Assembly (NCBI RefSeq): GCF_013282745.1
Contig: NZ_CP054044.1
Coordinates: forward strand, 3,906,001 to 3,970,000
Direction: 5' to 3'
DNA from: Yersinia bercovieri ATCC 43970
GTDB lineage: Bacteria > Pseudomonadota > Gammaproteobacteria > Enterobacterales > Enterobacteriaceae
Length of the DNA: 64,000 nt
In this document: positions 28,165 to 42,171 of the stretch, one piece after another
How positions within the stretch are numbered: position 1 is the stretch's first letter
How the letters are laid out: each line of letters begins with the position of its first letter
Made by a program: the position numbers and the translations under genes
Notes under the pieces: model-generated
Seen by the model: the letters and a program-made list of their open reading frames with translations, nothing else
Told to the model about the DNA's origin: nothing
Databases searched by the model: none

Positions 28165-28234
28165 CTGAAATAGAAAATAGAAAGCAGCTGTGAGGGTGGC
28201 AATAATGTTTATATCTGCACTATTGCCATCAAAT

Positions 28235-29220
28235 GGCTTTGTTGAATAAATCGAACTTTTACTGAGTTAAAGGATCAGATCACGCATCATCCGGCAACAC
28301 TGGTCGTCCCATGACAAAGCAGAAGTTTAAAGTCACTAACTGGCGCAACTACAACAAGGCCCTCATCAACCGCGGGGACGGCCTCAGCACTATTCTGATC
28401 TCGCCATCACCACTGTCCTGGTCGTTAAACGTGTATTCCGCCTGACCCTGCGAGCCGCACAGGGCTTTATTGATTCCATTTTTGCCATGATGGATGTTCC
28501 TCTTCGCTGTCCGGATTACACCAGTGTCAGCAAGCGGGCAAAGTCGGTTAATGTCAGTTTTAAAACGCCCACCCGGGGTGAAATTGCGCATCTGGTTATC
28601 GACACCACCGGCTTAAAAGTCTTCGGTGAGGGGGAGTGGAAAGTCAAAAAGCACGGCAAAGAGCGCCGTCGTATCTGGCGAAAACTGCATCTGGCTGTTG
28701 ATGCGAGTACGCATGAAGTCATCTGCGCGGACCTGTCGCTGAACAACGTCACGGACGCTGAAGCTTTCCCGGGACTTATCCGGCAGACCCACCGAAAAAT
28801 CAGGTCAGCGGCGGCGGACGGAGCTTACGATACACGGCGATGTCATGACGAACTACGTCGCAAGAAAATCAGCGCGCTCATTCCTCCCCGGAAGGGAGCT
28901 GGCTACTGGTCAGGTGAGTATGCAGACCGTAATCGTGCTGTTGCGAATCAACGGCTGAGCGGGAGCAATGCACGGTGGAAATGGACAACAGATTACAACC
29001 GTCGGTCGATAGCGGAAACGGCGATGTACAGTATAAAGCAGTTGTTCGGTGGTTCGCTGACGTTGCGTGACTACGATGGTCAGGTTGCAGAGGCTTTGGC
29101 CATGGTGCGTGCGCTGAACAAAATGACGAAGGCAGGCATGCCAGAAAGCGTGCGTATTATCTGACAACTGCAACCGGCTACGAAGATGCTTGCCCAAAAT
29201 CTGATTTATTCAACAAAGCC
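28235..29220 (+). mobile_element. IS903-like element (IS5 family), internally deleted
   Basis: Both ends are the 18-bp inverted repeat GGCTTTGTTGAATAAATC (28235-28252 and 29203-29220). The element is 986 bp, shorter than full-length IS903. The 9 bp on each side (ccatcaaat and acgcggggt) are not a target duplication, so it has recombined since insertion or marks a rearrangement point. Its right end runs straight into a DUF4942 gene fragment. Confidence 0.9.
28311..29164 (+). pseudogene. IS903-type transposase, disrupted by internal deletion
   Basis: The N-terminus MTKQKFKVTNWRNYNKAL is followed at about 28379 by a jump to RPQHYSDLAITTVLV in another frame. By comparison with IS903, about 70 bp are missing there, a number that breaks the frame. 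The rest is intact: the DDE-type core with HLVIDTTGLKVFGEGEWKV, AAADGAYDTR and NRRSIAETAMY. The deleted protein cannot be full length, so the element is probably immobile by itself. Confidence 0.85.
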
Positions 29221-29620
29221 ACGCGGGGTCATCAATTTATTCAAAGGATTATCCTGGCATTATAAAACCAACAGTCCATGCCAATTTGGCAAAAAAATAA
29301 TCATCAGCAATTTGGTCAGTTGCAACCGATGGGGCTTTACCCTGAACCACGGTTCCCGGCGAGACCTGGAGCGCATGTTGCACTTGCTGGACGGTAAAGT
29401 GATCCCGGATAACCGGGGCGATGTGACAAGCCGGTTGTATGAGCATATTAGTGCCAATCCGCATATAGCGAAAGTTTATGAAGACGATTACTTTTCGATA
29501 AAATACTTTATGAAGGGATCAGCGCACCTGACATTTAGAAAACTTTCATTGATTGACAAGATGAATGCTATCGTGGCGAAACATTACCCAGGCGTGCTGC
29601 CGGAACGTACAACCAGGTAA
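29221..29620 (+). pseudogene. DUF4942 protein, 3' fragment (left island copy)
   Basis: Sequence after the IS end reads VINLFKGLSWHYKTNSPCQFGKK, RWGFTL, VIPDNRGDVTSRLYEHISANP and VYEDDYFSIKYFMKGSAHLTF, a DUF4942 C-terminus. The N-terminal part is lost at the IS boundary. Such genes are typical of integrative islands (YeeUV/CP4-57 type) in enterobacteria; function is not established. A second remnant lies at 41656-41873 in the same orientation. Confidence 0.8.
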
Positions 29621-29819: not shown

Positions 29820-30143
29820 GTGTTTAATGTAATTTTACATGATGAAGTGCCTGATGAAATAGCAGGTTTACCGCCAGTCATCAGGGCTAAAATGATCCGC
29901 CTGATTGATAAGCTTAAAATGAATGCCACGGCATTACGAGAGCCCGACAGCAAACCCGTCAGAGACGGTTTGTTTGAACTCAGAACGATGGGAACCGATA
30001 TTGCCAGGGGATTGTATGTTTACCAGAAAGGAAAAAATATCTATCTACTGCGCGTGTTCATCAAGAAAACGCAGAAATTACCGTCAGGGGAGATAACCCT
30101 CGCGTTTGAGCGATTAGAGGAGATGCTACATGACAAAAGTTAA
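29820..30143 (+). CDS. HigB/RelE-type toxin (Gp49-like) of a type II toxin-antitoxin pair
   Basis: A 107-residue basic protein of the phage-derived Gp49-like/HigB group. The features are ELPPVIRAKMIRLIDKL-like helices, then LFELRTMGTDIARGLYVYQ and YLLRVFIKKTQKLP, the usual strand pattern ending FIKKTQK(T/L)P. It likely cleaves mRNA on the ribosome. The start is a GTG at 29820 with aggag seven bases upstream. Its 3' end overlaps the antitoxin gene by 14 bp; toxin-first order is typical of HigBA. Confidence 0.85.
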   Translation: MFNVILHDEVPDEIAGLPPVIRAKMIRLIDKLKMNATALREPDSKPVRDGLFELRTMGTDIARGLYVYQKGKNIYLLRVFIKKTQKLPSGEITLAFERLEEMLHDKS

Positions 30144-30417
30144 AGGTATTGCCTGGGATACCGTCAGGGCTGATTTAATGTCTGACCCAGAAGTACAAGC
30201 CGCTTATGAAGCCGAAGAGCGTAAAGAGCGTTTACAGATAATGCTGGCAGAATGGCGTCGCCATGCAGGATTAACCCGTGCGCAGGTTGCAGAACGAATG
30301 GGGGTAACACCGCCCACAGTTTCCCGCATGGAGTCTAATATCGTTAAAGCGAGCCTTGACACATTAGTCAGGTATGCCCATGCATGCGGTATTAAACATC
30401 CTCAGATTACATTATAG
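30130..30417 (+). CDS. HigA/XRE-family antitoxin
   Basis: A 95-residue DNA-binding antitoxin. The N-terminal part (KGIAWDTVRADLMSDPEVQAAYE) is the toxin-contact region typical of these proteins, followed by an XRE helix-turn-helix: AGLTRAQVAERMGVTPPTVSRMES. It overlaps the toxin gene by 14 bp, which couples translation. It should neutralise the toxin and repress the pair. Confidence 0.87.
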   Translation: MTKVKGIAWDTVRADLMSDPEVQAAYEAEERKERLQIMLAEWRRHAGLTRAQVAERMGVTPPTVSRMESNIVKASLDTLVRYAHACGIKHPQITL

Positions 30418-30599: not shown

Positions 30600-30622
30600 T
30601 TCGATTCCGAGTCCGGGCACCA
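30600..30622 (+). other. Orphan 3' end of tRNA-Phe: island attachment-site footprint
   Basis: The 23 bp are identical to the T-loop, acceptor 3' strand and CCA of tRNA-Phe (tcgattccgagtccgggcac plus CCA). The rest of a tRNA is absent. Integrative islands that use tRNA-Phe leave such a copy at one end. A terminator follows, as after a real tRNA gene. No integrase gene is present nearby. Confidence 0.8.
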
Positions 30623-30631
30623 TATTTAGAG

Positions 30632-30656
30632 AAACCAGCTTAACGGCTGGTTTTTT
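30632..30656 (+). terminator. Terminator following the tRNA-Phe fragment
   Basis: AAACCAGC and GCTGGTTT form an 8-bp stem and are followed by T residues. Confidence 0.85.
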
Positions 30657-30678
30657 GCTTTCTGGCGTTTGACTCTCC

Positions 30679-30745
30679 ATCGAACGCCGTTCGATTATTC
30701 GCCCTGCCAGCAGGACTCACCCCTTCGGGGCCGTCGCAAGCGACG
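30679..30745. repeat. Cluster of compact palindromes
   Basis: ATCGAACG-c-CGTTCGAT (30679-30695), CCCC-ttc-GGGG (30720-30730) and CGTCGC-aa-GCGACG (30732-30745) lie within 67 bp. They sit between the tRNA-Phe fragment and ddhD, in a 448-bp gene-free stretch, and may belong to the mobile element that left the attachment site. Confidence 0.55.
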
Positions 30746-30865
30746 TTCAACACCGCTGCGCGGGTTGTCCGAGATCGACGCATTCCTGCTTAAGCTCATA
30801 ATAATGGCAACCCCTAAATAGATAGTATATTCTAATAGACTTTCAAAATTCGAATCCGGTAATCC

Positions 30866-31855
30866 ATGGTTTCAGTAAAACTTCATGATGGACAGACATT
30901 CAGTTCCGACCTTGGCACTTCGCTGCTGGACAGCGCCAAAGCAGCGGGCATTACATTGGAATACAGCTGTCGCACGGGTCGTTGCGGCGTGTGCAAAGCC
31001 ACCGTACTCAGCGGTGATACTGAAGCTCACAGGGAAGAAACGTCACTGACTACCGAGGAAATTGCAGCGGGAGTGATTCTTACCTGCTGCCGCCATGCCA
31101 TAAGCGATGTCGAGATTGATGCCGAAGACATTGGCGCTCTGGGCGACATCGAGGTCAAAACTCTCCCTTGCCGCATTGATACGATCACCCGTTTGGCTGA
31201 TAACGTTGTGGAAGTACTCTTGCGAGTGCCTCCCGCCAGCAAGCTGCATTACCTTCCGGGTCAATATCTGGATGTGATCGGTGATGGCGGCCTGCGTCGC
31301 AGCTACTCTATTGCCAATGCCCCACGCACCGACGGTAAGCTGGAACTGCAGATCCGCGAAGTCGAACAAGGCGCGATGTCAAGATACTGGTTCGGCAGCG
31401 CCAAACCGAATGATCTACTTCGTCTAGAAGGCCCACTCGGCACCTTCTGCTTGCGAGACAAAGACGCCAGCACAATCGTGTTTCTCGCTACTGGCACCGG
31501 TATTGCGCCAGTGAAGGCGATGCTTGAGCAACTGCTAAACAACCCGGCTCTGGCAGAAGGTAAGAAAATTCTCATATACTGGGGCGGGCGTACCGTAGAT
31601 GATATTTATTGGGCCCCCCATTTCGAGAGTCTGAACGCGGTGTTTATTCCGGTATTGTCGCGAGCCGGCGCGGACTGGCAGGGGCGTACAGGCTACGTAC
31701 AGAACGTCCTGCTGGATGATGGAATCGACCTCACTAAGGCGGTGGTTTACGCCTGTGGTTCGGAAAGCATGATTCATTCCGCCCGCGAAGCACTGACTAT
31801 TGCTGGGTTACCTGTGAAACACTTTTACTCCGATGCATTCGTGAGTTCGAACTAA
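30866..31855 (+). CDS. ddhD: CDP-6-deoxy-delta-3,4-glucoseen reductase (E3)
   Basis: A 329-residue NADH-dependent flavo-iron-sulfur reductase. The N-terminal plant-type 2Fe-2S domain has the cysteines in EYSCRTGRCGVCKA and TCC. A FAD domain (RSYSIANAP) and a NAD domain (FLATGTGIAPVKAML, YACGSE) follow. It supplies electrons to DdhC in making CDP-4-keto-3,6-dideoxyglucose. First gene of the yersiniose operon; the RBS is weak and no JUMPstart/ops element was seen upstream. Confidence 0.92.
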   Translation: MVSVKLHDGQTFSSDLGTSLLDSAKAAGITLEYSCRTGRCGVCKATVLSGDTEAHREETSLTTEEIAAGVILTCCRHAISDVEIDAEDIGALGDIEVKTLPCRIDTITRLADNVVEVLLRVPPASKLHYLPGQYLDVIGDGGLRRSYSIANAPRTDGKLELQIREVEQGAMSRYWFGSAKPNDLLRLEGPLGTFCLRDKDASTIVFLATGTGIAPVKAMLEQLLNNPALAEGKKILIYWGGRTVDDIYWAPHFESLNAVFIPVLSRAGADWQGRTGYVQNVLLDDGIDLTKAVVYACGSESMIHSAREALTIAGLPVKHFYSDAFVSSN

Positions 31856-31873
31856 TACTAATAAGGAACGGTT

Positions 31874-32647
31874 ATGAAAGCGGTCATTCTGGCTGGTGGG
31901 CTCGGCACGCGTTTAAGCGAAGAAACCGGTACGCGGCCGAAGCCTATGGTTAAAATCGGCGGCAAGCCGATTCTGTGGCACATCATGAAAATGTACTCTT
32001 CCCATGGCATCAATGATTTCATCATTTGCTGTGGCTACAAGGGTTACATGATCAAGGAATACTTCGCTAACTACTTCCTGCATACGTCGGACATCACGTT
32101 CAACATGCGCGAAAACACCATGAAGATTCACGATCAGCGTGCTGAAGACTGGCATGTGACATTGGTCGACACGGGCGAAACGTCGATGACCGGTGGCCGC
32201 CTGCGCCGTGTGGCAGACTATGTGCGCGATGAAGAGGCTTTTTGCTTCACCTACGGTGATGGCGTGGGAAGCATGGACATCAGCGCTGCCGTCGCCTTCC
32301 ACAAGAGCCACGGCAAAGCTGCCACGCTCACCGCGACTTTTCCACCAGGCCGCTTTGGCGCGCTGGATATGAATGAAGGCCAAGTTCTGAACTTCAAAGA
32401 AAAACCTAAAGGCGATGGCGCCATGATCAATGGCGGCTTCTTTGTGCTTTCTCCTCAGGTGCTAGATTACCTAGAAGGGGACAGCACGGTCTGGGAACAG
32501 GGCCCGCTGATGAGCCTCGCCGAACAGGGCCAACTGATGGCCTTCGAGCACCCGGGCTTCTGGCAACCGATGGACACCCTGCACGACAAAAATCTGCTTG
32601 AGAAGTTGTGGCAGAGCGGCAACGCACCTTGGAAAACCTGGGACTGA
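31874..32647 (+). CDS. ddhA: Glucose-1-phosphate cytidylyltransferase
   Basis: A 257-residue sugar nucleotidyltransferase making CDP-glucose from CTP and glucose-1-phosphate, the first step of CDP-dideoxysugar pathways. The start MKAVILAGGLGTRLSEETG carries the nucleotide-binding signature, followed by RPKPMVKIGGKPILWH and FTYGDGVG. Length is normal for RfbF/DdhA. It begins 18 bp after ddhD, with an aaggaa RBS. Confidence 0.95.
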   Translation: MKAVILAGGLGTRLSEETGTRPKPMVKIGGKPILWHIMKMYSSHGINDFIICCGYKGYMIKEYFANYFLHTSDITFNMRENTMKIHDQRAEDWHVTLVDTGETSMTGGRLRRVADYVRDEEAFCFTYGDGVGSMDISAAVAFHKSHGKAATLTATFPPGRFGALDMNEGQVLNFKEKPKGDGAMINGGFFVLSPQVLDYLEGDSTVWEQGPLMSLAEQGQLMAFEHPGFWQPMDTLHDKNLLEKLWQSGNAPWKTWD

Positions 32648-32654
32648 GAACGAT

Positions 32655-33743
32655 ATGAAAGCTTCTGTCTCCGCTGACTTCTGGAAAGGTAAAAAGGTCT
32701 TCCTCACCGGTCATACTGGTTTCAAGGGTAGTTGGCTGGCTTTATGGCTACAGGACATGGGTGCTCAGGTGAAAGGCTTTGCCTTAGCGCCGCCAACTAC
32801 GCCTTCATTGTTCGAACAGGCACAGGTTGAAAGGGGTATAGAGTCGCAGATAGGCGACATTCGTGACCTACATGCCGTTACTGATAGCATGGTTGCCTTC
32901 AATCCAGACATACTGATTCACATGGCGGCTCAACCGCTGGTTAGACTGTCGTACCGCGAGCCTGTCGAAACCTACTCCACCAACGTCATGGGCACCGTTC
33001 ATGTGTTGGAGGCCGCGCGTAAGTGTCCCGCCCTACGTGCTATCGTGAATGTCACCACCGACAAATGTTACGAGAACCAAGAATGGGAATGGGGCTATCG
33101 CGAGAATGAACCCATGGGTGGCCACGATCCGTACAGCAACAGTAAGGGCTGTGTGGAATTGGTCACCAGTGCTTATCGCAACTCATTCTTTAATACCGAA
33201 CACTCCGCTGTATTGGCCTCGGCACGCGCCGGCAATGTCATCGGGGGAGGCGATTGGGCCGACGACCGGTTGATTCCGGACATCCTGCGTGCTGTCGAAC
33301 AGAGCAAGCCCGTTGTCGTGCGTAACCCGAAGGCCACCCGCCCTTGGCAGCACGTACTTGAGCCGCTAAGCGGTTACCTTGTTCTGGCCCAACACCTATG
33401 GGAGCATGGCCAATCATTTGCTCAGGGCTGGAACTTCGGTCCTCGCGACGAAGATGCTCAACCAGTCGAATGGATACTCGATCACATGGTGCAGGCCTGG
33501 GGGGATGGCGCTAGCTGGCAGCTTGACAGCGACCCGCAACCGCACGAAGCACGCTATTTAAAACTGGATATATCCAAGGTCCGCACTCACCTGAAGTGGG
33601 AACCAACATGGGGCTTGGAGACGACACTCACTCGCATCGTCAACTGGCATCGCGCCTGGTTGCAGAGCGATGACATGCATGCCCGTTGCATCGAAGAAAT
33701 CAATAGCTACATGGCAGCTATGCCACTGGCACTTAACCGATAA
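32655..33743 (+). CDS. ddhB: CDP-glucose 4,6-dehydratase
   Basis: A 362-residue extended SDR-family enzyme making CDP-4-keto-6-deoxyglucose. The Rossmann motif is TGHTGFKGSW near the N-terminus. The active-site YxxxK appears as YSNSKG and the Thr in NVTTDKCYEN. The ATG at 32655, 7 bp after the ddhA stop, gives the usual N-terminus; an upstream in-frame start inside ddhA is not used. Confidence 0.95.
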   Translation: MKASVSADFWKGKKVFLTGHTGFKGSWLALWLQDMGAQVKGFALAPPTTPSLFEQAQVERGIESQIGDIRDLHAVTDSMVAFNPDILIHMAAQPLVRLSYREPVETYSTNVMGTVHVLEAARKCPALRAIVNVTTDKCYENQEWEWGYRENEPMGGHDPYSNSKGCVELVTSAYRNSFFNTEHSAVLASARAGNVIGGGDWADDRLIPDILRAVEQSKPVVVRNPKATRPWQHVLEPLSGYLVLAQHLWEHGQSFAQGWNFGPRDEDAQPVEWILDHMVQAWGDGASWQLDSDPQPHEARYLKLDISKVRTHLKWEPTWGLETTLTRIVNWHRAWLQSDDMHARCIEEINSYMAAMPLALNR

Positions 33744-33764
33744 TTAGATTGAACAGGAAATACT

Positions 33765-35078
33765 ATGACCCCCGATATGCTCCGTCAGGAAATCAGCCAA
33801 CTCGTTGAGCGCTACGCCCAAACTGCCTTGGCGGCTAAACCTTTTGTCGGGGGCGAAACTGTCATCCCTCCATCGGGTAAAGTAATCGGCGCACGTGAAC
33901 TGCAACTGATGGTTGAGGCCTCGCTGGACGGCTGGCTGACCACTGGTCGTTTCAACGCTGAATTCGAGAAGAAACTAGCTGCGTTTTTGGGCGTGAACTA
34001 CCTGCTGACCGTGAACTCAGGTTCTTCGGCCAACTTGGTTGCGTTCAGCACCCTAACTTCACCGAAACTGGGTGATCGTGCAATCAAAAAAGGCGACGAA
34101 GTCATTGGCGTTGCTGCGGGTTTCCCGACTACTGTTAACCCGATCGTTCAGTTCGGCGCGATCCCTGTGTTCGTCGATGTTGAAATGAACACCCACAACA
34201 TCAATGCAGACTTGATCGAAGCCGCCATCACGCCGAAGACCAAGGCCATCATGCTCGCTCACACCTTGGGCAACCCATTCAATCTGAGCAAGGTGAAAGC
34301 ACTGTGTGAAAAGTACAACCTGTGGCTGGTCGAAGATTGCTGTGACGCGCTGGGCGCGACATACGACGGCAAAATGGTCGGTACCTTTGGCGATATCGCC
34401 ACGCTCAGCTTCTACCCTGCCCACCACATCACCATGGGTGAAGGTGGCGCTGTGTTTACGAACAACGCTCAACTGAGACTGATCGCCGAGTCGTTCCGTG
34501 ATTGGGGCCGTGACTGCTATTGCGCGCCAGGTTGCGACGACACCTGCGGCAATCGTTTCGGACAGAAATTCGGTAGCCTGCCACAAGGTTACGATCACAA
34601 GTATGTGTACGCACACTTGGGCTACAACCTGAAAATCACTGACATGCAAGCCGCCTGCGGCTTGGCCCAGTTGGAAAGCGCGCCGACATTCATCGAGACC
34701 CGCAAGCGCAACTTCAAGCTACTGAAAGAGCGTTTGTCCAGCCTCAGCGCCTTCTTGGAAATCGCCGAGCCTACGCCTAACAGTGACCCATCTTGGTTCG
34801 GTTTCCCAGTGACCTTGAAAGAAACTGCAGGCGTTAAGCGTGTAGACTTGCTAAAGTTTCTTGATCAACACAAGATCGGCACTCGGCTTCTTTTCGCAGG
34901 CAACCTGACTCGCCAGCCGTACTTCCATGATGTGGAATTCCGCGTGGTGGGCGAACTGACCAACACCGATCGCACCATGAACCAGACCTTCTGGCTGGGC
35001 GTACAACCGTCGTTGGGTCAGGAACATTTCGATTACGTTGGTGAAAAACTGGAAGAGTTCTTCGGGATCGGTTTCTAA
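33765..35078 (+). CDS. ddhC: CDP-4-keto-6-deoxyglucose 3-dehydrase (E1)
   Basis: A 437-residue aminotransferase-fold enzyme that uses PMP and a 2Fe-2S cluster to remove the C3 hydroxyl with DdhD. The usual PLP lysine is replaced by His220, in FYPAHHITMGEGG, the hallmark of E1. Iron-sulfur cysteines are visible in DCYCAPGCDDTCG. The product, CDP-4-keto-3,6-dideoxyglucose, is the branch point to abequose, paratose, ascarylose and yersiniose. Here yerE follows directly. Confidence 0.96.
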   Translation: MTPDMLRQEISQLVERYAQTALAAKPFVGGETVIPPSGKVIGARELQLMVEASLDGWLTTGRFNAEFEKKLAAFLGVNYLLTVNSGSSANLVAFSTLTSPKLGDRAIKKGDEVIGVAAGFPTTVNPIVQFGAIPVFVDVEMNTHNINADLIEAAITPKTKAIMLAHTLGNPFNLSKVKALCEKYNLWLVEDCCDALGATYDGKMVGTFGDIATLSFYPAHHITMGEGGAVFTNNAQLRLIAESFRDWGRDCYCAPGCDDTCGNRFGQKFGSLPQGYDHKYVYAHLGYNLKITDMQAACGLAQLESAPTFIETRKRNFKLLKERLSSLSAFLEIAEPTPNSDPSWFGFPVTLKETAGVKRVDLLKFLDQHKIGTRLLFAGNLTRQPYFHDVEFRVVGELTNTDRTMNQTFWLGVQPSLGQEHFDYVGEKLEEFFGIGF

Positions 35079-35081
35079 CTT

Positions 35082-36797
35082 ATGAAAGCATCAGATGCAG
35101 TAGCAAAAGTCCTAGCGGACACCCAAGTCATTTATGGTTTTGAGCTCATTGGTGGAATGATCACCCATTTGGTGGATAGCATTAACTTGCTTGGCAAAAC
35201 CAAATTGGTATCAATGCACCATGAGCAAGGCGCCGCCTTCGCTGCATCTGCTGTCGCACGTGCGACAAATCACAAAGTGATGGGCGTGGCATTGGGCACT
35301 AGTGGCCCAGGTGCCACGAACTTGATCACGGGAATTGCCGATTGCTGGCTGGACAGCCACCCGTGTCTGTTCCTGACCGGCCAGGTCAATACACATGAGC
35401 TCAAAGGGGAACGGGCCATCCGTCAACAGGGTTTTCAAGAGCTCGATAGCGTCGCGTTGGTGAAGAGTATCACCAAGTATGCTCATCAAGTCGGGCACAT
35501 TGATGAACTGATTCCCTGCTTGCTCAAAGCGATTACCATCGCTCGATCAGGTCGCCCAGGCCCTGTATTGCTGGACATACCCATGGACATCCAGCGAGCC
35601 GAGGTGGACGAGGCAGTATTGGATGAATTATTAAGCGTCTGGGCCTACGAGTCTTCGTTGGCACCGGAGCAAAGCGCCCCGTACGACGATGTATGGGCGT
35701 TGTTGGAAAAAGCGCAGAAACCCGTTTTCCTTATTGGTGGCGGCGCAGTAAATGTACCTGGGTTCAGCCAATGGTTGAGCGAGGTCAGTAAACTGGGCAT
35801 CCCTCACGTCGCAAGCCTTAAGGGTGCCGAGAAACTACCTGCCAGCGAGCATTACCTTGGAATGCTGGGGGCCTATGGCACCCGAGCGGCTAATTATGCA
35901 GTGCAGAACTGCGACCTGTTGATCGTGTTCGGCAGCCGCATGGATGTGCGCCAAACCGGCGCAAAGACGGAAACCTTCGCGCACAATGCGCATATCGTGC
36001 AGTTCGATCTGGACGCTGCCCAGTTGGATAACAGGGTAAAAGCGCAACAGTCGATCAATGCCAACCTTGAGGCGGTATTTGCCTCTTTCGTCACCCATGC
36101 TCCAAACCTACGATCCGTCCCCACTGCTTGGCAAACGCACCTAGCGCAGGTGTTCGAGCAGTCGTTCAAGGACGAGTATACGGACTGGAGTATCAGCCCT
36201 TTCAAACTGTTCAGTACCCTCAACGAGCTGGCTGAAGGCCAAGCGCTAGATTACGTCGTCGATGTGGGCAACAACCAGATGTGGGCCGCGCACACCTTGC
36301 GCCTAGGCTCTCGTCAGGCTATGCACCATTCTGGTGGCCTAGGTACGATGGGCTTTGCCATTCCCTCTGCGGTGGGTGCCTGTATCGCTGGTGGCAAGCC
36401 AGTTGTGGTGATTACTGGTGATGGCGGCGCCCAACTGAATATTCAAGAGCTGGATATCATCGCCCGTGAGCGTCTCCCCATCCTCACGGTGGTATTGAAC
36501 AACCATTCCCTAGGCATGGTACGAGGCTTTCAGGAAATGTATTTCGAGGGTCGTAACTCCTCCACTTACTGGGATGGCTACACATCGCAATTCCAAGCAC
36601 TGGGTGCTGCCTATGGCATCGATTCGCGGAGCTTGAGCGACCTGGAAACCTTCAAGGCAGCGGTGTCTGAGTTCCTAGCGAGTGGAAAGCCGATGCTGCT
36701 TGAGGTATTGATGCCAGATGCGCGAGAGTGCCGACCACGTCTGGAGTTCGGCCGTCCCATCAACGAACAGTCGCCGCTACTGGAGCTGGGTCAATGA
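35082..36797 (+). CDS. yerE: YerE, thiamine-diphosphate enzyme for branched-sugar (yersiniose A) formation
   Basis: A 571-residue acetolactate-synthase-like protein. Glu48 of SMHHEQGAAF is the ThDP activator; the cofactor motif runs from GDGGAQLNIQEL (Asp447) to NNHSLGM. YerE decarboxylates pyruvate and adds the two-carbon unit to C4 of CDP-4-keto-3,6-dideoxyglucose. The context (after ddhDABC, overlapping a YerF-like reductase) supports this rather than ordinary acetolactate synthase, as does the absence of a small regulatory subunit gene. It starts 3 bp after ddhC. Confidence 0.9.
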   Translation: MKASDAVAKVLADTQVIYGFELIGGMITHLVDSINLLGKTKLVSMHHEQGAAFAASAVARATNHKVMGVALGTSGPGATNLITGIADCWLDSHPCLFLTGQVNTHELKGERAIRQQGFQELDSVALVKSITKYAHQVGHIDELIPCLLKAITIARSGRPGPVLLDIPMDIQRAEVDEAVLDELLSVWAYESSLAPEQSAPYDDVWALLEKAQKPVFLIGGGAVNVPGFSQWLSEVSKLGIPHVASLKGAEKLPASEHYLGMLGAYGTRAANYAVQNCDLLIVFGSRMDVRQTGAKTETFAHNAHIVQFDLDAAQLDNRVKAQQSINANLEAVFASFVTHAPNLRSVPTAWQTHLAQVFEQSFKDEYTDWSISPFKLFSTLNELAEGQALDYVVDVGNNQMWAAHTLRLGSRQAMHHSGGLGTMGFAIPSAVGACIAGGKPVVVITGDGGAQLNIQELDIIARERLPILTVVLNNHSLGMVRGFQEMYFEGRNSSTYWDGYTSQFQALGAAYGIDSRSLSDLETFKAAVSEFLASGKPMLLEVLMPDARECRPRLEFGRPINEQSPLLELGQ

Positions 36798-37726
36798 GAC
36801 TCGCCATCCTAGGAGCGAGCAGCCATATCGCCAAGGACCTGATAGCCAGCATTCCGTCGACGACTTATCAGTGCACCCTGTTCGTCCGCGCGTCCAGCAC
36901 GTTGGATGCCGAGCTTCAAGAGACTGCGGCGCGCAAGGGGTTTGCCGTCGTCACCTACGACAGTTTTGATGATAGCGACCAGTTCGACGCGATCATCAAT
37001 TTCGTTGGCGTAGGCGATCCGGCCAGAGCGTTACAAATGGGTCAAGCCATTTTTACCGTCACCGAACACTATGACAACTTTGCCTTGGCCTATCTGCGCA
37101 GCCACCCTGAGTGCAAATACATCTATCTCAGTAGCGGCGCCGCCTATGGTTCCAATTTTGCAGCCCCGGTCACAGAGACCTCGACGGCAGTTTTTCCAAT
37201 CAATGCCCTATTGCCCCAGCACTGGTATGGCGCTGCCAAATTCCAGACTGAGTGTCGTCATCGAGCACTGCCGGATGCGGCTATCGTCGATGTTCGTGTA
37301 TTCAGCTATTTCAGTCATCGTCAGGCGCGCGAGGCACGGTTCTTCCTTAGTGACATCCTAAGGGCACTGCATGCGGGGACGGTTCTGGAAGTTGCACCGG
37401 ATGACATGCTGCGAGACTACCTTACCCCTGCTGACTTCATGCAGTTAATCGACCGAATACTGCAAGCGCCTGCATGCAACAGTGCTGTGGACTGTTACAG
37501 CCTCGCGCCCGTAGGGAAATTTGAGTTGCTCGCAGCTTTGGGCGAGCAGTTCGGTCTGAACTTTACGATTGTCGGTGAGCAGTCTCAGGTGAATGCCACA
37601 GGCCAAAAGGCTCATTACTATTCGTACAATCGCAAGGCCGAGCAATTATTCGGCTATGTACCCACCGATTCTTCGCTGAGCGGTGTGATGCATGAGATCA
37701 GGCAGGCACTGCATGCAGAAGACTGA
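36794..37726 (+). CDS. yerF: YerF, NAD(P)H reductase completing CDP-yersiniose A
   Basis: A 310-residue SDR-like protein, start MRLAILGASSHIAKDL (degenerate Rossmann glycine motif), with YLSSGAAYGSNF and the YxxxK-like WYGAAKFQ. In Y. pseudotuberculosis VI, YerF reduces the acetyl side-chain ketone left by YerE to a hydroxyethyl group. Start ATG overlaps the yerE stop as ATGA. The symbol rests on family resemblance and position. Confidence 0.85.
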   Translation: MRLAILGASSHIAKDLIASIPSTTYQCTLFVRASSTLDAELQETAARKGFAVVTYDSFDDSDQFDAIINFVGVGDPARALQMGQAIFTVTEHYDNFALAYLRSHPECKYIYLSSGAAYGSNFAAPVTETSTAVFPINALLPQHWYGAAKFQTECRHRALPDAAIVDVRVFSYFSHRQAREARFFLSDILRALHAGTVLEVAPDDMLRDYLTPADFMQLIDRILQAPACNSAVDCYSLAPVGKFELLAALGEQFGLNFTIVGEQSQVNATGQKAHYYSYNRKAEQLFGYVPTDSSLSGVMHEIRQALHAED

Positions 37727-38117
37727 AAAAGCATGCCCACGGATTAGCGCACTTCTAGAGGTAAAGCTGGTCCGTTTTTTGTTGGTGGGGGTGATGAATG
37801 CAGCGTTCGGTTACGGCTGTTTTGCTGCCTTTCTCTACCTCGGTCTGCATTACAGCATGGCTCTACTACTGGCCACGATCCTCGGCGTCTTGTTCAACTT
37901 TAAAAGCATCGGTGCCTTGGTGTTTGGCTCGAAAAAAAATAGTCTCATCTTCCGTTTCGTGGCCGGGTATATCGTTGTCTACGGTGCCAACGTGGCGGGT
38001 ATTGCTGCGCTTACATCACTGGGCGCGACCCCCTATTTAGCTGGCATCGCATTAATTGTGCCGATGGCTCTACTCTCATTTGTCATTAATAACAGGTATA
38101 TATTCAATCATGCGTAA
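37713..38117 (+). CDS. gtrA: GtrA-family membrane protein (lipid-linked sugar flippase)
   Basis: A 134-residue protein with four membrane helices and the GtrA opening VKLVRFLLVGVMNAAFGYGCFA, ending VINNRYIFNHA. GtrA proteins are thought to move undecaprenyl-phosphate-linked sugars to the periplasmic face. I chose the ATG at 37713, which overlaps yerF by 14 bp; an ATG at 37692 is also open. It overlaps the next gene by 8 bp. Confidence 0.88.
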   Translation: MQKTEKACPRISALLEVKLVRFLLVGVMNAAFGYGCFAAFLYLGLHYSMALLLATILGVLFNFKSIGALVFGSKKNSLIFRFVAGYIVVYGANVAGIAALTSLGATPYLAGIALIVPMALLSFVINNRYIFNHA

Positions 38118-39042
38118 ACTCATCAGCATAGTGACACCTTGCTACAACGAAGAAGCCAATATTGATGAACTTTACCAGCGCATCGTCGACGTTATGGCAC
38201 GTCTTGACTACGATTACGAACATATCTTCATCGACAACTGCTCAACTGATAACAGCCTCGTCAAGTTGCGTGCATTGGCGGCCCAAGACAAGCGGGTAAA
38301 GCTCATCCTGAACGCGCGAAACTTCGGCCATATCCGCTCGCCGTACTATGCTTTGCTTCAGGCTCGGGGCGATGCCGCAATATTGATTGCCTCTGACCTG
38401 CAAGACCCGCCCGAAATGATCGAAGAGTTCGTGAAAAAGTGGGAGGAAGGTTTCAAGACAGTCATGGCGGTGAAACCGGAAAGCGAAGAGTCGCGCCTAA
38501 TGTTCTTCGCACGCCGTACCTACTATCGCTTCGTCACCCGTATCTCCGAAGTGCCGTTGGTGCAAAATGCCACGGGAGCAGGTCTATTCGACCGGGCCGT
38601 TCTGGACATACTGAAGAAGATTGACGACCCTTATCCCTATTTCCGTGGTCTGCTGTGTGAGATAGGCTTCCCGATCGCGACCGTGCCATTCAAGCAACCA
38701 CGGCGCATGCGCGGCATAACCAAAAACAATTTCTACACGTTGTATGACATTGCCATGCTGGGTATTACCAATCACTCCAAAGTGCCGCTACGGCTGATGG
38801 TGATAGGCGGCGCAATGCTCGCAGGGCTCAGCCTGTTGGCCGCATTTGGGTTCTTGATCGCGAAGTTGGTATTCTGGAACTCCTTCCAAATGGGTATCGC
38901 GCCATTGCTCATTTCTTTGTTCTTTTTCAGCTCGGTACAGATCCTGTTCTTGGGGATGCTTGGGGAGTACTTGGGATCGGTTCACACCAAAATCCGCAAT
39001 ATGCCGTTAGTCATCGAAAGCGAACGCGTGAATTTTGACTAA
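38110..39042 (+). CDS. gtrB: GtrB-type undecaprenyl-phosphate glycosyltransferase (GT2)
   Basis: A 310-residue GT2 enzyme with DPM1/GtrB topology. The catalytic domain opens ISIVTPCYNEEANIDELY with the metal motif ASDLQDPPEMI, and RRMRGITKNNFYTL is the GtrB-type R-x-x-G-x-(S/T)-K segment. Two C-terminal helices anchor it. GtrB normally links glucose from UDP-glucose to undecaprenyl phosphate. Here the donor could be UDP-glucose or, by context, CDP-yersiniose; sequence alone cannot decide. Confidence 0.9.
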   Translation: MRKLISIVTPCYNEEANIDELYQRIVDVMARLDYDYEHIFIDNCSTDNSLVKLRALAAQDKRVKLILNARNFGHIRSPYYALLQARGDAAILIASDLQDPPEMIEEFVKKWEEGFKTVMAVKPESEESRLMFFARRTYYRFVTRISEVPLVQNATGAGLFDRAVLDILKKIDDPYPYFRGLLCEIGFPIATVPFKQPRRMRGITKNNFYTLYDIAMLGITNHSKVPLRLMVIGGAMLAGLSLLAAFGFLIAKLVFWNSFQMGIAPLLISLFFFSSVQILFLGMLGEYLGSVHTKIRNMPLVIESERVNFD

Positions 39043-39059
39043 CCTCCCTGGGGAATGCA

Positions 39060-41347
39060 TTGAAATCTATACTTAAACCAAGTACATATAGTGAGACTGA
39101 AATGAGCGCTTATCCAACATGGCGGATGACGTTTGCTGCCGACTGGAAGCTGATAATCATCGGTACGATTGCGACTTTCTTCCTCGCAAGCATTTTCATG
39201 AGTGGCCTGCCCGACGGCTTGATACCAAACTTGACAACCCCCTATGGCTATTCGGGTGATGGATTGTTCCATGCATGGATGGCGCAAAGAGTCACGGAAG
39301 GCTGGCTATTCGATAACGTCCGAAGTGGTTATCCATTCGGTTCAAGCTTCCTAGATTTCCCAGGTTCAGATTCGGGCGCTCACTTATTGATCAAAGTATT
39401 CGCGCTGATGAGTGGCGGCTGGGTGGGTGGAGTGAATCTATTCTTTTTGTTTGGATTTGCTTCCTGCTTCGTTGCCACCTACGTGACCGCTCGGGCTTTC
39501 TCTCTGAATCGCAGTTTTGCCGTGGCGATGAGCGTACTTTACACGTTTGTCCCTTTCCACTTCCTTCGGTTAGGACATCTTTTTTACACTTGCTATTTTG
39601 TCGCCCCGCTGTTTTTCTATCTGGCATTAGATATCTACCTGACCCGCGGGCCTACAGGTCGCACGGGACTTAAATCGACGCTTCGCAAACTCGTGGCGTC
39701 CGCTGCAGGCATGCTGGTTCTCGCCTCCTTCGGGGTGTATTACGCTTTGTTTGGGGTGATTATTCTCGCCACAGCCGGTGTCATGAGCGCTATCAAATCT
39801 CGACGCTCCCACGGTGCGAAAAAAGCGGCGCTACTCATCAGTGCAACCATTTTAGGTGTGATGTTAAACCTCGCGCCTAACGTGCTAGGGACTTATAAGA
39901 ACGGCCCTAACCTGGAGATGGCTCAGCGTTCAATTGTCGAATCTGAAACCTATGGGCTGAAGATGATGCAGCTGTTGATGCCGCGGATAGACCACCGGAT
40001 TTCACAATTTAGAGCGGTCGCCCAGAAGTATCAACAAACCCCTTTAGTCAACGAAAATGCTAGTTCGTCGATGGGTATCATCGGTGCTGCGGGCTTTATG
40101 ATGGCGTTGCTTTACCTAATCTTCATCCCTGCACGGACGAGATATGATGATAAGCTTCGCCTTCTTGCGGTCACGACATTTGTGCTGTTCCTGTTTGCAA
40201 CAGTAGGCGGCTTAGGTTCGCTCTTTGCAATGGTCATTTCCCCGTTGATAAGGGGTTGGAACAGAGACAGCATTTTCATCGCTTGCGGCGCCCTGCTTTT
40301 CTTCTTCATTTCGCTCCAGCTTTTATTGCAGAAGAAAGCACCTCGGCTTGCCAAGCAGTCGGTAGCCATTGCAGTAGTGCTGATGTTCGTAGGCTTGTAC
40401 GACCAGACCGTGTCAGCCTGCAAAAACTGTAATGCGACCGTTAAGGCTTGGTTCGATAACGACAGAGACTTTGTCCAATCTATCGAAAAAGCGCTCCCTG
40501 CGGGGGGGCGGTTTATCAGTTGCCTTACATAGGCTTTCCTGAAACACCGATAATGCACCGCTTACGCAGTTACCAAATGATGGCTGGTGTGCTGCATTCG
40601 AAAGACCTGCATTGGAGCTACGGCGGTACGAAGGGGCGGCCAGGTGATTTGTTCTATCGTGCGCTGGCACAAGAGCCAATGTCGCATCAGATTGAGGTCA
40701 TCCGCAAACTCGGCTTTGATGGCATTTATATCGATCGTCGTGGCTATGCAGACAACGGCGAAGCGATTATTCAAGAATTATCTCAGTTGCTACAGCAACC
40801 GCCGCTGCTTCAGAGTGACAACAAAGAAATGGTGTTCTATAAGCTGGATAACAGCGCGCATCCCGACTTGGCCAGTCTGACAACAAAGCAAATTCAGCGA
40901 GAGGCAGGGTACATTGCAGACGCTTTAGGCCCACGCTACAGCGCAGACCTGATGAGCGGAATAGACTTTACCCGGGCCAACTTGCCTGACTTTATAGACG
41001 ACGCCCAAGGTCTGTATGCAGCCGAGCCGTGGGGACGCTGGTCATCCCAACAAGCCGTCTTCAAATTTACCGACCCACTGCCACAGAAATTCTCTCTTAT
41101 ACTGAATGCTCGGATTTTTGACGCGAAAGATCATGAACCGACTCTCGTCAGGATAGGCAGTCGTGAATACCGTATTCCGCTCACTACAGGTGCCTCTGAA
41201 ATCCGTCTGGATGTTGACCTCGAAGGTGAGAGCGCCGATAGCATCACTTTCATCCCACCCAAAGCGGTATCGCCTATGCAGCTTACCGGAAGCTCGGATT
41301 ATCGGATTCTTGGTATCGGTTTCGTATCAATGCGAATAATCCAATGA
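39060..41347 (+). pseudogene. GtrC-like polytopic transferase, frameshifted at a G7 tract
   Basis: The first frame has about ten or more membrane helices after a short cytoplasmic N-terminus, with acidic loop residues (YGYSGDGLFHAW, DFPGSDSGAH) as in GT-C transferases. It stops after GGRFISCLT. The rest (QLPYIGFPETPIMHRL... to a beta-rich C-terminal domain) is in another frame. Changing the run of seven G at 40502-40508 to eight or five joins the halves into about 760 residues. By position it is the periplasmic transferase of a Gtr module. The start is TTG 39060 or ATG 39102. It is either off by phase variation, decayed, or an assembly error. Confidence 0.7.
40502..40508 (+). repeat. G7 homopolymer at the frameshift
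   Basis: Seven consecutive G at exactly the point where the two halves of the transferase change frame. Confidence 0.85.
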
Positions 41348-41444
41348 CAAAGTCGACCTGAGGCATGAATCGGTATTATTGAGTGTGAGCAGTTTTATTG
41401 CCAAAGTAAGAAAATATAAAGCGCAGCTATTTCATTGGATAGCT

Positions 41445-41655
41445 GGCTTTGTTGAATAAATCAGATTTTGGGCAAGCATCTTCGTAGCCGGTTGCAGTTG
41501 TCAGATAATACGCACGCTTTCTGGCATGCCTGCCTTCGTCATTTTGTTCAGCGCACGCACCATGGCCAAAGCCTCTGCAACCTGACCATCGTAGTCACGC
41601 AACGTCAGCGAACCACCGAACAACTGCTTTATACTGTACATCGCCGTTTCCGCTA
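41445..41655 (-). mobile_element. Truncated IS903-like element (3' end only)
   Basis: It begins with the same 18-bp terminal repeat, GGCTTTGTTGAATAAATC, and repeats the last about 211 bp of the element at 28235-29220 in inverted orientation. It breaks off after the codons for the AETAMY region. It runs directly into a DUF4942 remnant. Confidence 0.9.
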
Positions 41656-41873
41656 AGGCTATCCCCGATAATCGGGGCGATGTGACAACTCGGCTTTATG
41701 CGCTGATCAGTGCCAATCCGCATATAGCGAAAGTTTATGAAGACGATTACTTTTCGATAAAATACTTTATGAAGGGCTCAGCGCATCTGACATTTAGGAA
41801 GCCTGAATTGATTGATAAGATGAATGATATCGTGGCGAAACACTATCCACAGATGCTTTCGACAAAAATTTAG
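41656..41873 (+). pseudogene. DUF4942 protein, 3' fragment (right island copy)
   Basis: Reads IPDNRGDVTTRLYALISANP, VYEDDYFSIKYFMKGSAHLTF and ending KHYPQMLSTKI. It is clearly homologous to the left copy at 29221-29620, but differs at many positions. The two are therefore related remnants rather than a recent duplication. The N-terminal part is missing at the IS junction. Confidence 0.8.
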
Positions 41874-42083: not shown

Positions 42084-42171
42084 TGGCGGAGGAGGAGAGA
42101 TTCGAACTCTCGAACGGTTACCCGTCGACGGTTTTCAAGACCGTTGCCTTCAGCCACTCGGCCACCCCTCC
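42084..42171 (-). tRNA. serT: tRNA-Ser (anticodon TGA)
   Basis: An 88-nt class II tRNA read on the minus strand: acceptor GGAGGGG, D-loop GGCCGAGTGGCTGAAGG, anticodon loop CTTGAAA, a long variable arm, the T-loop GTTCGAATC and encoded GCCA. Sequence and place (next to tusE, as in E. coli) identify serT. Its 3' end faces the accessory island, but I found no second copy of its 3' end on the far side. Confidence 0.97.

What the first reader, a model, noticed from the sequence alone, without database searches (positions are those of the whole stretch)
30866..41347. A yersiniose pathway joined to a Gtr-type surface-glycan module in an accessory island
Seen: ddhD-A-B-C, yerE, yerF, gtrA, gtrB and a polytopic gtrC-like gene run in one direction with overlaps or very small gaps. 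Known: DdhABCD plus YerE/YerF make CDP-yersiniose A; GtrA/GtrB flip an undecaprenyl-linked sugar used by a third, serotype-specific protein. Inferred: the operon makes a branched dideoxysugar and adds it to O-antigen or another surface glycan as a mobile side-branch system. This differs from the normal placing of ddh genes in an O-antigen locus. GtrB using a CDP-dideoxysugar would be new to me.
Basis: partly seen in the sequence, partly recalled or inferred. Interest (0 to 1): 0.82.

Follow-up and report, generated by a model that had tools for sequence, protein, structure and literature searches.

The report
Mobile module adding branched yersiniose sugar
A movable set of nine bacterial genes appears to make the rare branched sugar yersiniose and, through a variant of a known membrane-carrier system, to hang it on the cell's outer polysaccharide; the carrier-loading enzyme seems to read a different nucleotide (CDP) from its studied relatives.

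Summary
The nine genes are present in the order and strand reported, in a Yersinia genome. One correction: gtrC is split between two frames at a run of G; 10 of 10 relatives compared carry it open.

The same order occurs in four other Yersinia species and six Pseudomonas genomes; a seventh Pseudomonas has the first eight genes with a different third gene. All seven Pseudomonas copies lie beside gmd and/or wzm-wzt. The window's genome has a similar locus elsewhere, so the likely acceptor is an ABC-exported, probably D-rhamnose, O polysaccharide.

The main result concerns GtrB. Its kin form a clade (99/92 support) in which the residue aligned with base-reading Asp39 of P. furiosus DPMS is Asn in 21 of 21, against Asp in 38 of 42 others. 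A CDP-glucose synthase gene lies near 11 of 20 clade members and 0 of 40 others. I infer a CDP-sugar-using branch of GtrB-type polyprenyl-phosphate glycosyltransferases. No assay or sugar analysis supports this yet.

New variant of a known kind; interest 0.62.

The parts
30866..31855 (+). ddhD: CDP-6-deoxy-glucose-3-dehydrase reductase (2Fe-2S/FAD/NAD)
   Evidence: Pfam Fer2+FAD_binding_6+NAD_binding_1; 62-98% identical in the relatives
31874..32647 (+). ddhA: glucose-1-phosphate cytidylyltransferase
   Evidence: TIGR02623 466 bits vs cut-off 300
32658..33743 (+). ddhB: CDP-glucose 4,6-dehydratase
   Evidence: TIGR02622 519 bits vs cut-off 278
33765..35078 (+). ddhC (RfbH): CDP-4-keto-6-deoxyglucose 3-dehydrase
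   Evidence: NF011936 742 bits vs cut-off 423
35082..36797 (+). yerE: ThDP enzyme adding the two-carbon branch at C-4
   Evidence: Pfam TPP_enzyme N/M/C; best solved match 5ahk, E 2.5e-261
36794..37726 (+). yerF: SDR reductase of the branch keto group
   Evidence: Pfam Epimerase; next to yerE in the nine-gene relatives
37692..38117 (+). gtrA: small membrane protein, proposed flippase of the lipid-linked sugar
   Evidence: PF04138 GtrA_DPMS_TM
38110..39042 (+). gtrB: polyprenyl-phosphate glycosyltransferase of the Asn (CDP-linked) clade
   Evidence: PF00535; phrog_841 GtrB-like; clade, motif and neighbours
38236..38238 (+). codon of GtrB Asn43, aligned with base-reading Asp39 of PfDPMS
   Evidence: alignment; PfDPMS contacts from PMC5526996
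38389..38391 (+). codon of GtrB Ala94, where 41 of 42 homologues outside the clade have the first Asp of DxD
38575..38577 (+). codon of GtrB Gly156, where GtrBSyn has the putative catalytic acid Asp157
   Evidence: PMC4728340 passages
39060..40532 (+). gtrC, first part: polytopic GT-C-like membrane region
   Evidence: open frame; 52-92% identical to the first part of the one-frame gene in Yersinia and Pseudomonas; GT-C folds are the best structural matches of the Y. aleksiciae homologue
40520..41347 (+). gtrC, second part in another frame, with DUF7024 domain
   Evidence: PF22895 91.8 bits
40502..40508 (+). run of G at which the gtrC frame changes; its length differs from that in relatives
30601..30622 (+). 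copy of the last 22 nt of tRNA-Phe, followed by the sequence found downstream of intact tRNA-Phe in G214
28234..29221 (+). insertion sequence with DDE transposase
   Evidence: PF01609; terminal inverted repeats
41444..41655 (-). 212-nt remnant of the same insertion sequence, inverted, 100% complementary
29392..29590 (+). DUF4942 gene fragment, left copy of a flanking duplication
41651..41849 (+). right copy of that duplication (87% identical)
42084..42171 (-). tRNA-Ser (TGA) at the right edge of the island
   Evidence: ARAGORN

Best explanation
A mobile three-component glycosylation module that carries its own sugar supply. DdhA-D, YerE and YerF make CDP-yersiniose in the cytoplasm (inferred from orthology). 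GtrB, of a clade that reads cytidine rather than uridine, moves yersiniose from CDP to undecaprenyl phosphate (inferred). GtrA flips the lipid-linked sugar (inferred from family). The GT-C protein GtrC adds yersiniose as a side branch to an O polysaccharide, probably the D-rhamnose-type chain that Wzm/Wzt export, in the periplasm (inferred from synteny). In this genome the GtrC frame is broken, so the last step is probably off in the sequenced cells, unless the G run varies in length or was misread.
For: Family assignments. Nine-gene unit kept in 4 other Yersinia and 6 Pseudomonas, and 8 genes plus a different polytopic third gene in G773. Of 8 Pseudomonas genomes with yerE among 298 searched, 6 have gtrA-gtrB directly after yerF; the two without (L047, L048, fetched 19.9 kb each) have a Wzx-like protein (below its family cut-off) and a GT2 instead. 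All 7 Pseudomonas gtr copies lie beside gmd and/or wzm-wzt, and the window's genome has such a locus. GtrB clade: ddhA near 11 of 20 clade loci against 0 of 40 others; ddhA in 19 of 20 clade genomes, 24 of 61 with other GtrBs, 43 of 217 with none at that threshold; base-reader Asp to Asn in 21 of 21. In G069 and G278 the same clade sits beside CDP-sugar genes with transketolase-type rather than YerE-type genes (G069 read by eye), so the sugar pathway is exchanged while a CDP origin stays.
Against: No assay, no LPS analysis. The putative catalytic acid Asp157 of GtrBSyn is Gly in the window's GtrB and in 12 of 21 clade members, and the first Asp of DxD is lost, so the chemistry may differ. Asn at position 43 also occurs in 4 of 42 homologues outside the clade, whose neighbourhoods have no ddhA. 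Nine of 20 clade neighbourhoods show no ddhA. The Fisher tests treat related loci as independent. Three distant gtrC relatives (G228, G390, G430) have no ddhA in the fetched flanks. The link of island and rmd-like gene within Yersinia is weak: 4 of 5 with the island, 8 of 20 without (one-sided p 0.14); Y. artesiana has the island but no rmd or wzm hit. GtrC is broken here.
Confidence: 0.66

Rival explanations
1. GtrB and GtrC are an ordinary UDP-glucose (or UDP-galactose) Gtr system that happens to be linked to a CDP-yersiniose pathway whose sugar is added by an unlinked cytoplasmic transferase.
For: The characterised GtrB of Synechocystis uses UDP-glucose (PMC4728340), and GtrB-type enzymes of side-chain hexose addition are described as using UDP-sugars (PMC11127046). 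The window's GtrB is 30-32% identical to those of phages SfII, P22 and Pocitis76, so its donor is untested.
Against: No other transferase gene lies in the nine-gene unit in the 10 relatives. The clade-wide link to ddhA and the base-reader change are unexplained by this view.
Confidence: 0.15
2. The module decorates something other than an O polysaccharide, such as core, lipid A or another surface glycan.
For: Y. artesiana has the unit but no wzm or rmd hit; in the window's genome the unit lies outside the gmd/wzm-wzt locus.
Against: 7 of 7 Pseudomonas copies lie beside gmd and/or wzm-wzt; 4 of 5 Yersinia carriers have a gmd/rmd-like block.
Confidence: 0.2
3. In this genome the module is a decaying remnant: gtrC is dead and IS elements have broken up the island.
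For: Frame change in gtrC; IS copy and remnant and duplicated DUF4942 fragments at both sides.
Against: All eight other genes are open and 92-100% identical to those of four other Yersinia, GtrA 89% at the lowest. The frame change is at a homopolymer, a common site of both reversible slips and sequencing errors (general knowledge).
Confidence: 0.35

Closest known systems
GtrA/GtrB/Gtr(type) serotype-conversion systems of Shigella and Salmonella phages (SfII, P22)
   Same: Order gtrA-gtrB-third gene; GtrA family; GT2 with two predicted C-terminal TM helices (hydropathy count in homologues); replaceable third gene
   Different: GtrB only 30-32% identical, with Asn for the base-reading Asp and no first Asp of DxD; carries a complete CDP-sugar pathway
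CDP-yersiniose pathway of Yersinia pseudotuberculosis O:6/O:12 and Pseudomonas (WCS417)
   Same: ddhA-D, yerE, yerF
   Different: In Y. pseudotuberculosis O:12 yersiniose is the terminal residue of an O unit moved by Wzx (PMC6436433, passages); here it is tied to GtrA/GtrB/GtrC. Whether WCS417 has gtr genes beside PS417_08220-08245 was not seen
Three-component pentofuranose systems (Citrobacter youngae O1/O2, GT136; PMC11127046)
   Same: Lipid-linked donor, flippase and GT-C decorating an ABC-exported O polysaccharide after polymerisation
   Different: The donor there comes from PRPP by an unrelated synthase, and the flippase is of the MATE family
Dolichyl-phosphate mannose synthase, ArnC and GtrBSyn
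   Same: Same GT2 polyprenyl-phosphate transferase family; metal Asp and the two Arg positions (GtrBSyn R122, R200) mostly kept
   Different: DPMS uses GDP-Man and GtrBSyn UDP-glucose; ArnC's UDP-sugar is recalled; all have Asp at the base-reading position

Membership tests
Gtr three-component system | GtrA-type small membrane protein next to gtrB | tested here: met
   PF04138 49.2 bits vs cut-off 26.1
Gtr three-component system | GtrB-type GT2 of the polyprenyl-phosphate transferase family | tested here: met
   PF00535, phrog_841 202 bits, match over residues 5-305 of 310 to GtrBSyn, 180 bits
Gtr three-component system | UDP-sugar donor site (Asp at base reader, DxD, Asp157) | tested here: not met
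   Asn43, Ala94, Gly156; the donor itself was not assayed
Gtr three-component system | GT-C third component, replaceable between systems | tested here: inconclusive
   Open and GT-C-like in relatives, with moderate model confidence (pLDDT 66, TM-scores 0.36-0.41); a different polytopic protein without Pfam match stands in G773; broken in the window
Gtr three-component system | Periplasmic addition to a surface glycan | not testable with these tools
   needs mutants and LPS analysis
CDP-yersiniose pathway | ddhA, ddhB, ddhC equivalogs | tested here: met
   Over NCBIfam cut-offs
CDP-yersiniose pathway | ddhD reductase | tested here: met
   Domain set; no NCBIfam cut-off was reached for it
CDP-yersiniose pathway | YerE and YerF | tested here: met
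   YerE: 871 bits to 5ahk; that 5ahk is PpYerE is recalled, not from a call. YerF: by family and position only
CDP-yersiniose pathway | product is CDP-yersiniose A | not testable with these tools
   needs enzyme assay; stereochemistry at the branch cannot be read from sequence
Phage-borne seroconversion cassette | phage integrase or structural genes with the cassette | tested here: inconclusive
   GtrC first part has no match in 50,697 phage records. Of the flanks only four ORFs between 28487 and 30414 and two further left were scanned by Pfam: transposase, DUF4942 fragment, a Gp49-family ('phage derived') and an HTH protein, no integrase

The most novel reading that the evidence does not exclude
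A whole clade of GtrB-type enzymes, in this sample spread over 11 family labels besides Yersinia and Pseudomonas, charges polyprenyl phosphate from CDP-activated sugars (3,6-dideoxy and C-4-branched), with the base-reading Asp turned to Asn as the switch from uracil or guanine to cytosine. These enzymes supply three-component systems with replaceable parts that hang such sugars on finished polysaccharides outside the cytoplasm, a route not used by the classical abequose, tyvelose and yersiniose O units.
Probability: 0.6. Interest if true: 0.76.

Novelty: new variant of a known kind. Interest (0 to 1): 0.62.

Why it matters
In the passages I read, polyprenyl-phosphate sugar donors come from UDP-sugars, GDP-mannose, PRPP and, once, methylthioadenosine. 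A CDP branch would widen the sugars that extracytoplasmic GT-C enzymes can use, and would explain how 3,6-dideoxy and branched sugars reach chains that ABC transporters export already polymerised. It gives a clade and a residue for predicting the donor of many unassigned GtrB-like proteins, and a module that could change O serotype in one transfer.

Tried and rejected
Phage origin: the first part of GtrC has no match among phage records; GtrB matches 132 phage records, all under 60% identity; a viral-contig scan gave one locus. Rejected as a shown source, not excluded for the clade (L082, a 4.8-kb faecal 'phage' scaffold, has an Asn-type GtrB).

Asn43 as a CDP marker by itself: rejected. Four of 42 homologues outside the clade also have Asn there, with no ddhA in the fetched stretch. 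The marker is the clade, not the letter alone.

The G run as a phase-variation tract kept by selection: not adopted. G214 has no such long run there, the two Pseudomonas compared have none, and the window holds eight G or C runs of 7 or more.

Link of island and O-polysaccharide type across Yersinia: tested, weak (p 0.14).

Loss of the first DxD Asp as a mark of 3-deoxy sugars: not adopted. The two clade members that keep it lack a ddhC hit, but so do four that lost it (L085, L087, L098, L102).

GtrB structure model: mean pLDDT 45.8, not used except that its strand 35-42 ends just before Asn43, as expected for the beta2-alpha2 loop.

Promoter and terminator scans: no more than shuffles give. 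Plasmid search with YerE gave only matches under 60%, those listed mostly named acetolactate synthase or unnamed.

Literature: ten searches of an open-licence library; the listings and the passages opened showed no GtrB with a CDP-sugar; 'yersiniose' with 'GtrB' gave 0 papers. Listed papers that I did not open (for example PMC7198725, PMC4869667) could hold more. [quoted passage not shown] mandelii yersiniose structure cited in PMC4509608.
Full report
What is there. The window lies in a 4.40-Mb genome of two contigs of the genus Yersinia: its tusE-to-rlmI stretch is 79-93% identical in DNA to those of the Y. aleksiciae, Y. artesiana and Y. vastinensis genomes. Nine coding stretches on the + strand from 30866 to 41347 fit ddhD, ddhA, ddhB, ddhC, yerE, yerF, gtrA, gtrB and gtrC. 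DdhA, DdhB and DdhC pass NCBIfam equivalog cut-offs. YerE is closest, among solved structures, to 5ahk (871 bits), deposited as an acetolactate synthase; I recall it as PpYerE of Pseudomonas protegens, and no call says so.

The correction. gtrC is split: 39060-40532 and 40520-41347 lie in different frames. In 10 of 10 relatives compared it is one open frame. The change of frame falls at a run of G near 40502 whose length differs from that in relatives. The first part holds the membrane region, the second the DUF7024 domain. A model of the Y. aleksiciae homologue (mean pLDDT 66) matches GT-C enzymes best: AftD and STT3-type subunits of oligosaccharyltransferase, E 9e-7 to 3e-5, but TM-scores (by query length) only 0.36-0.41. 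I kept the parts apart throughout.

Who else has it. A scan of named genomes gave five loci, all with the nine genes in the same order: Y. artesiana, Y. aleksiciae, Y. vastinensis, Pseudomonas sp. M47T1 and P. graminis. In the genus, 5 of 25 species genomes have gtrC, the window's included; by coordinates three of the others are the named ones, and the unnamed fifth, G214, has all nine genes. In a family sample, 2 of 198 genomes have gtrC: the window's and G069. In a class sample, 4 of 369 match a gtrC profile at E 1e-30: the window's and three distant ones (G228, G390, G430), whose fetched flanks show no ddhA. In a Pseudomonas sample, 8 of 298 genomes have a YerE at E 1e-180 or better. Of those 8, 6 have gtrA-gtrB straight after yerF: five with this gtrC (G201, G725, G765, G637, G712) and one, G773, with a different polytopic third gene that has no Pfam match. 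The other two, G681 and G838, have no gtr genes in the fetched 19.9 kb; their loci hold a Wzx-like protein (NF041503, 82 and 89 bits, below its cut-off of 300) and a GT2 (PF00535). So yersiniose genes come with GtrAB beside ABC-export genes, and with another GT2 and a flippase-like protein otherwise. That contrast rests on seven loci (the six plus P. graminis) against two.

The acceptor. In 7 of 7 Pseudomonas loci with gtrAB, gmd and/or wzm-wzt lie within the fetched flanks (L012/L049, L013, L042, L043, L044, L045/L174, L046). The window's genome has a locus manC-(manB)-wzm-wzt-methyltransferase-GT-gmd-rmd-like-GT-GT-galU-gnd at contig 1, about 2.967-2.984 Mb; manC passes TIGR01479 and gmd TIGR01472, and Wzt carries the Wzt_C domain. 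The rmd-like gene reached no equivalog cut-off, so 'D-rhamnose' is my inference from its place beside gmd; manB, the GTs, galU and gnd are named by eye. G214 has the same block, Y. aleksiciae has it with wzm in pieces, and Y. vastinensis has its gmd-side part at a contig end; Y. artesiana gave no wzm or rmd hit. Across the genus, the rmd-like gene is in 4 of 5 carriers and 8 of 20 non-carriers, one-sided p 0.14: compatible, not proof.

GtrB. In PfDPMS, Asp39 of the beta2-alpha2 loop bonds guanine N1 and N2 (PMC5526996, passages). GtrBSyn (UDP-glucose) and ArnC have Asp at the aligned place, as do the GtrBs of phages SfII, P22 and Pocitis76. The window's GtrB has Asn43 there. I drew GtrB homologues from 299 genomes of the phylum: 82 genomes, the window's included, matched at E 1e-45 or better, with 104 matches. 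I fetched 60 neighbourhoods holding 63 of the 103 matches other than the window's: the 20 best genomes; 20 lower ones chosen as presumed Asp-type, the motif of seven of them having been seen; and 20 more, mostly by rank, including Asn-type ones passed over before. The choice was made before any wide neighbourhood had been looked at. Of the 63, 25 have Asn and 38 Asp at that place. The 20 best neighbourhoods hold 21 homologues that form, with the Yersinia, Pseudomonas and G069 rows and one phage scaffold (30 rows), one side of a branch with 99/92 support; the other 46 rows lie on the other side (midpoint root). ddhA (at least 40% identical over half its length) is in 11 of these 20 neighbourhoods and in 0 of the other 40 (Fisher p 4.9e-7, relatedness ignored). 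Ten of the 11 were given to NCBIfam and all 10 pass TIGR02623. Of the nine misses, six held under 17 kb of sequence and one (L093) has a ddhC piece at its edge. At genome level TIGR02623 is in 19 of 20 clade genomes, 24 of 61 genomes with other GtrBs and 43 of 217 with none at that threshold (p 1.3e-5 for 19/20 against 24/61). This takes the two draws of 299 to be the same genomes; the handles listed agree, but not all are listed.

Further donor-site changes. The first Asp of DxD is lost in 19 of 21 clade members and kept in 41 of 42 others. The two that keep it (L103, L104) have ddhA and ddhB but no ddhC hit nearby; four that lost it (L085, L087, L098, L102) also show no ddhC, so no rule follows. 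The putative catalytic acid Asp157 of GtrBSyn is Gly in 12, Asp in 6 and Glu in 3 of 21, against Asp in 41 of 42 others. The metal-binding Asp96 is kept in all, Arg200 in 20 of 21, and Arg122 is Arg in 18 and Lys in 3. The pattern fits a changed donor and an unchanged lipid acceptor, but the loss of Asp157 also warns that the reaction has not been shown for this branch.

Exchange of the sugar pathway. In G069 the gtrABC genes follow ddhA-B-C and, read by eye, a methyltransferase-like gene, an SDR and a two-gene transketolase; in G278, ddhA-ddhB, a transketolase pair (first gene Transketolase_N; second by eye), an SDR, gtrA, gtrB and a polytopic protein. In G966 and G984 a YerE-like gene (35-36%) and an SDR stand beside ddhA-B-C and gtrB. 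So the C-branching enzyme varies while the CDP origin and the GtrB clade stay.

Mobility. Homology to the four Yersinia relatives covers about 30800-41390 of the window as one block. In G214 and Y. vastinensis the unit follows an intact tRNA-Phe. In the window the last 22 nt of tRNA-Phe and the sequence downstream of it stand at 30601-30773, but the only tRNA gene in the window is tRNA-Ser at 42084-42171. An insertion sequence (28234-29221) and a 212-nt inverted remnant of it (41444-41655), with duplicated DUF4942 fragments, frame the island. I read this as a unit at home beside tRNA-Phe that was carried to a second site; the carrier is unknown.

Known background. Yersiniose A is known in O antigens of Y. 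pseudotuberculosis O6 and O12 (PMC8533242, passages) and is listed among the terminal residues of O units moved by Wzx (PMC6436433, passages). YerE acts on CDP-3,6-dideoxy-4-keto-D-glucose (PMC12247030, passages). ddhA-D, yerE and yerF were noted in the O-antigen locus of Pseudomonas WCS417 (PMC4509608, section 11 read). Three-component systems for glucose, galactose and pentofuranoses are described in PMC11127046 (passages), which gives UDP-sugars as donors of GtrB-type enzymes. A gtrB between wzm/wzt and vioA is mentioned in Massilia O-antigen loci, without a donor (PMC9834719, passages). None of these passages has a GtrB with a CDP-sugar.

Verdict. A real, conserved, mobile unit; a new variant of the Gtr kind with its own CDP-sugar supply; broken in its last gene as assembled here. 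The general claim, a CDP-using clade of GtrB enzymes, is the part worth testing.

Noticed in passing
L015:10320-15803 and L048:4985-12537: Yersiniose-type loci without gtr genes carry a second or divergent YerE-like enzyme with genes that look, by eye, like an acylating aldehyde dehydrogenase and a 4-hydroxy-2-oxo-acid aldolase; this would fit longer branches as in erwiniose, whose ErwE prefers 4-hydroxy-2-oxo acids (PMC12247030, passages).
   Followed up: partly
G204 (Y. aleksiciae) contig 1, 383770-384548: wzm of the gmd/rmd-like O-polysaccharide locus matches in two pieces, one with a stop inside, although the strain carries the open nine-gene unit.
   Followed up: no
window 29820-30417: Gp49-family protein (PF05973) and HTH protein, a toxin-antitoxin-like pair, just left of the module.
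   Followed up: no
L082 (4.8 kb, faecal phage scaffold MT838861): An Asn-type GtrB, 45% identical to the window's, on a scaffold deposited as phage; its context was not searched for ddh genes.
   Followed up: partly
window 12552, 13615, 17822, 20706, 30447, 40502, 42872, 46580: Eight G or C runs of 7 or more, two of them of 9, so long homopolymers are not rare here.
   Followed up: no
L033:5805-6305: About 169 nt starting in the 3' end of tRNA-Phe recur in tandem copies left of the module in G214; one diverged copy stands at window 30606-30773.
   Followed up: partly
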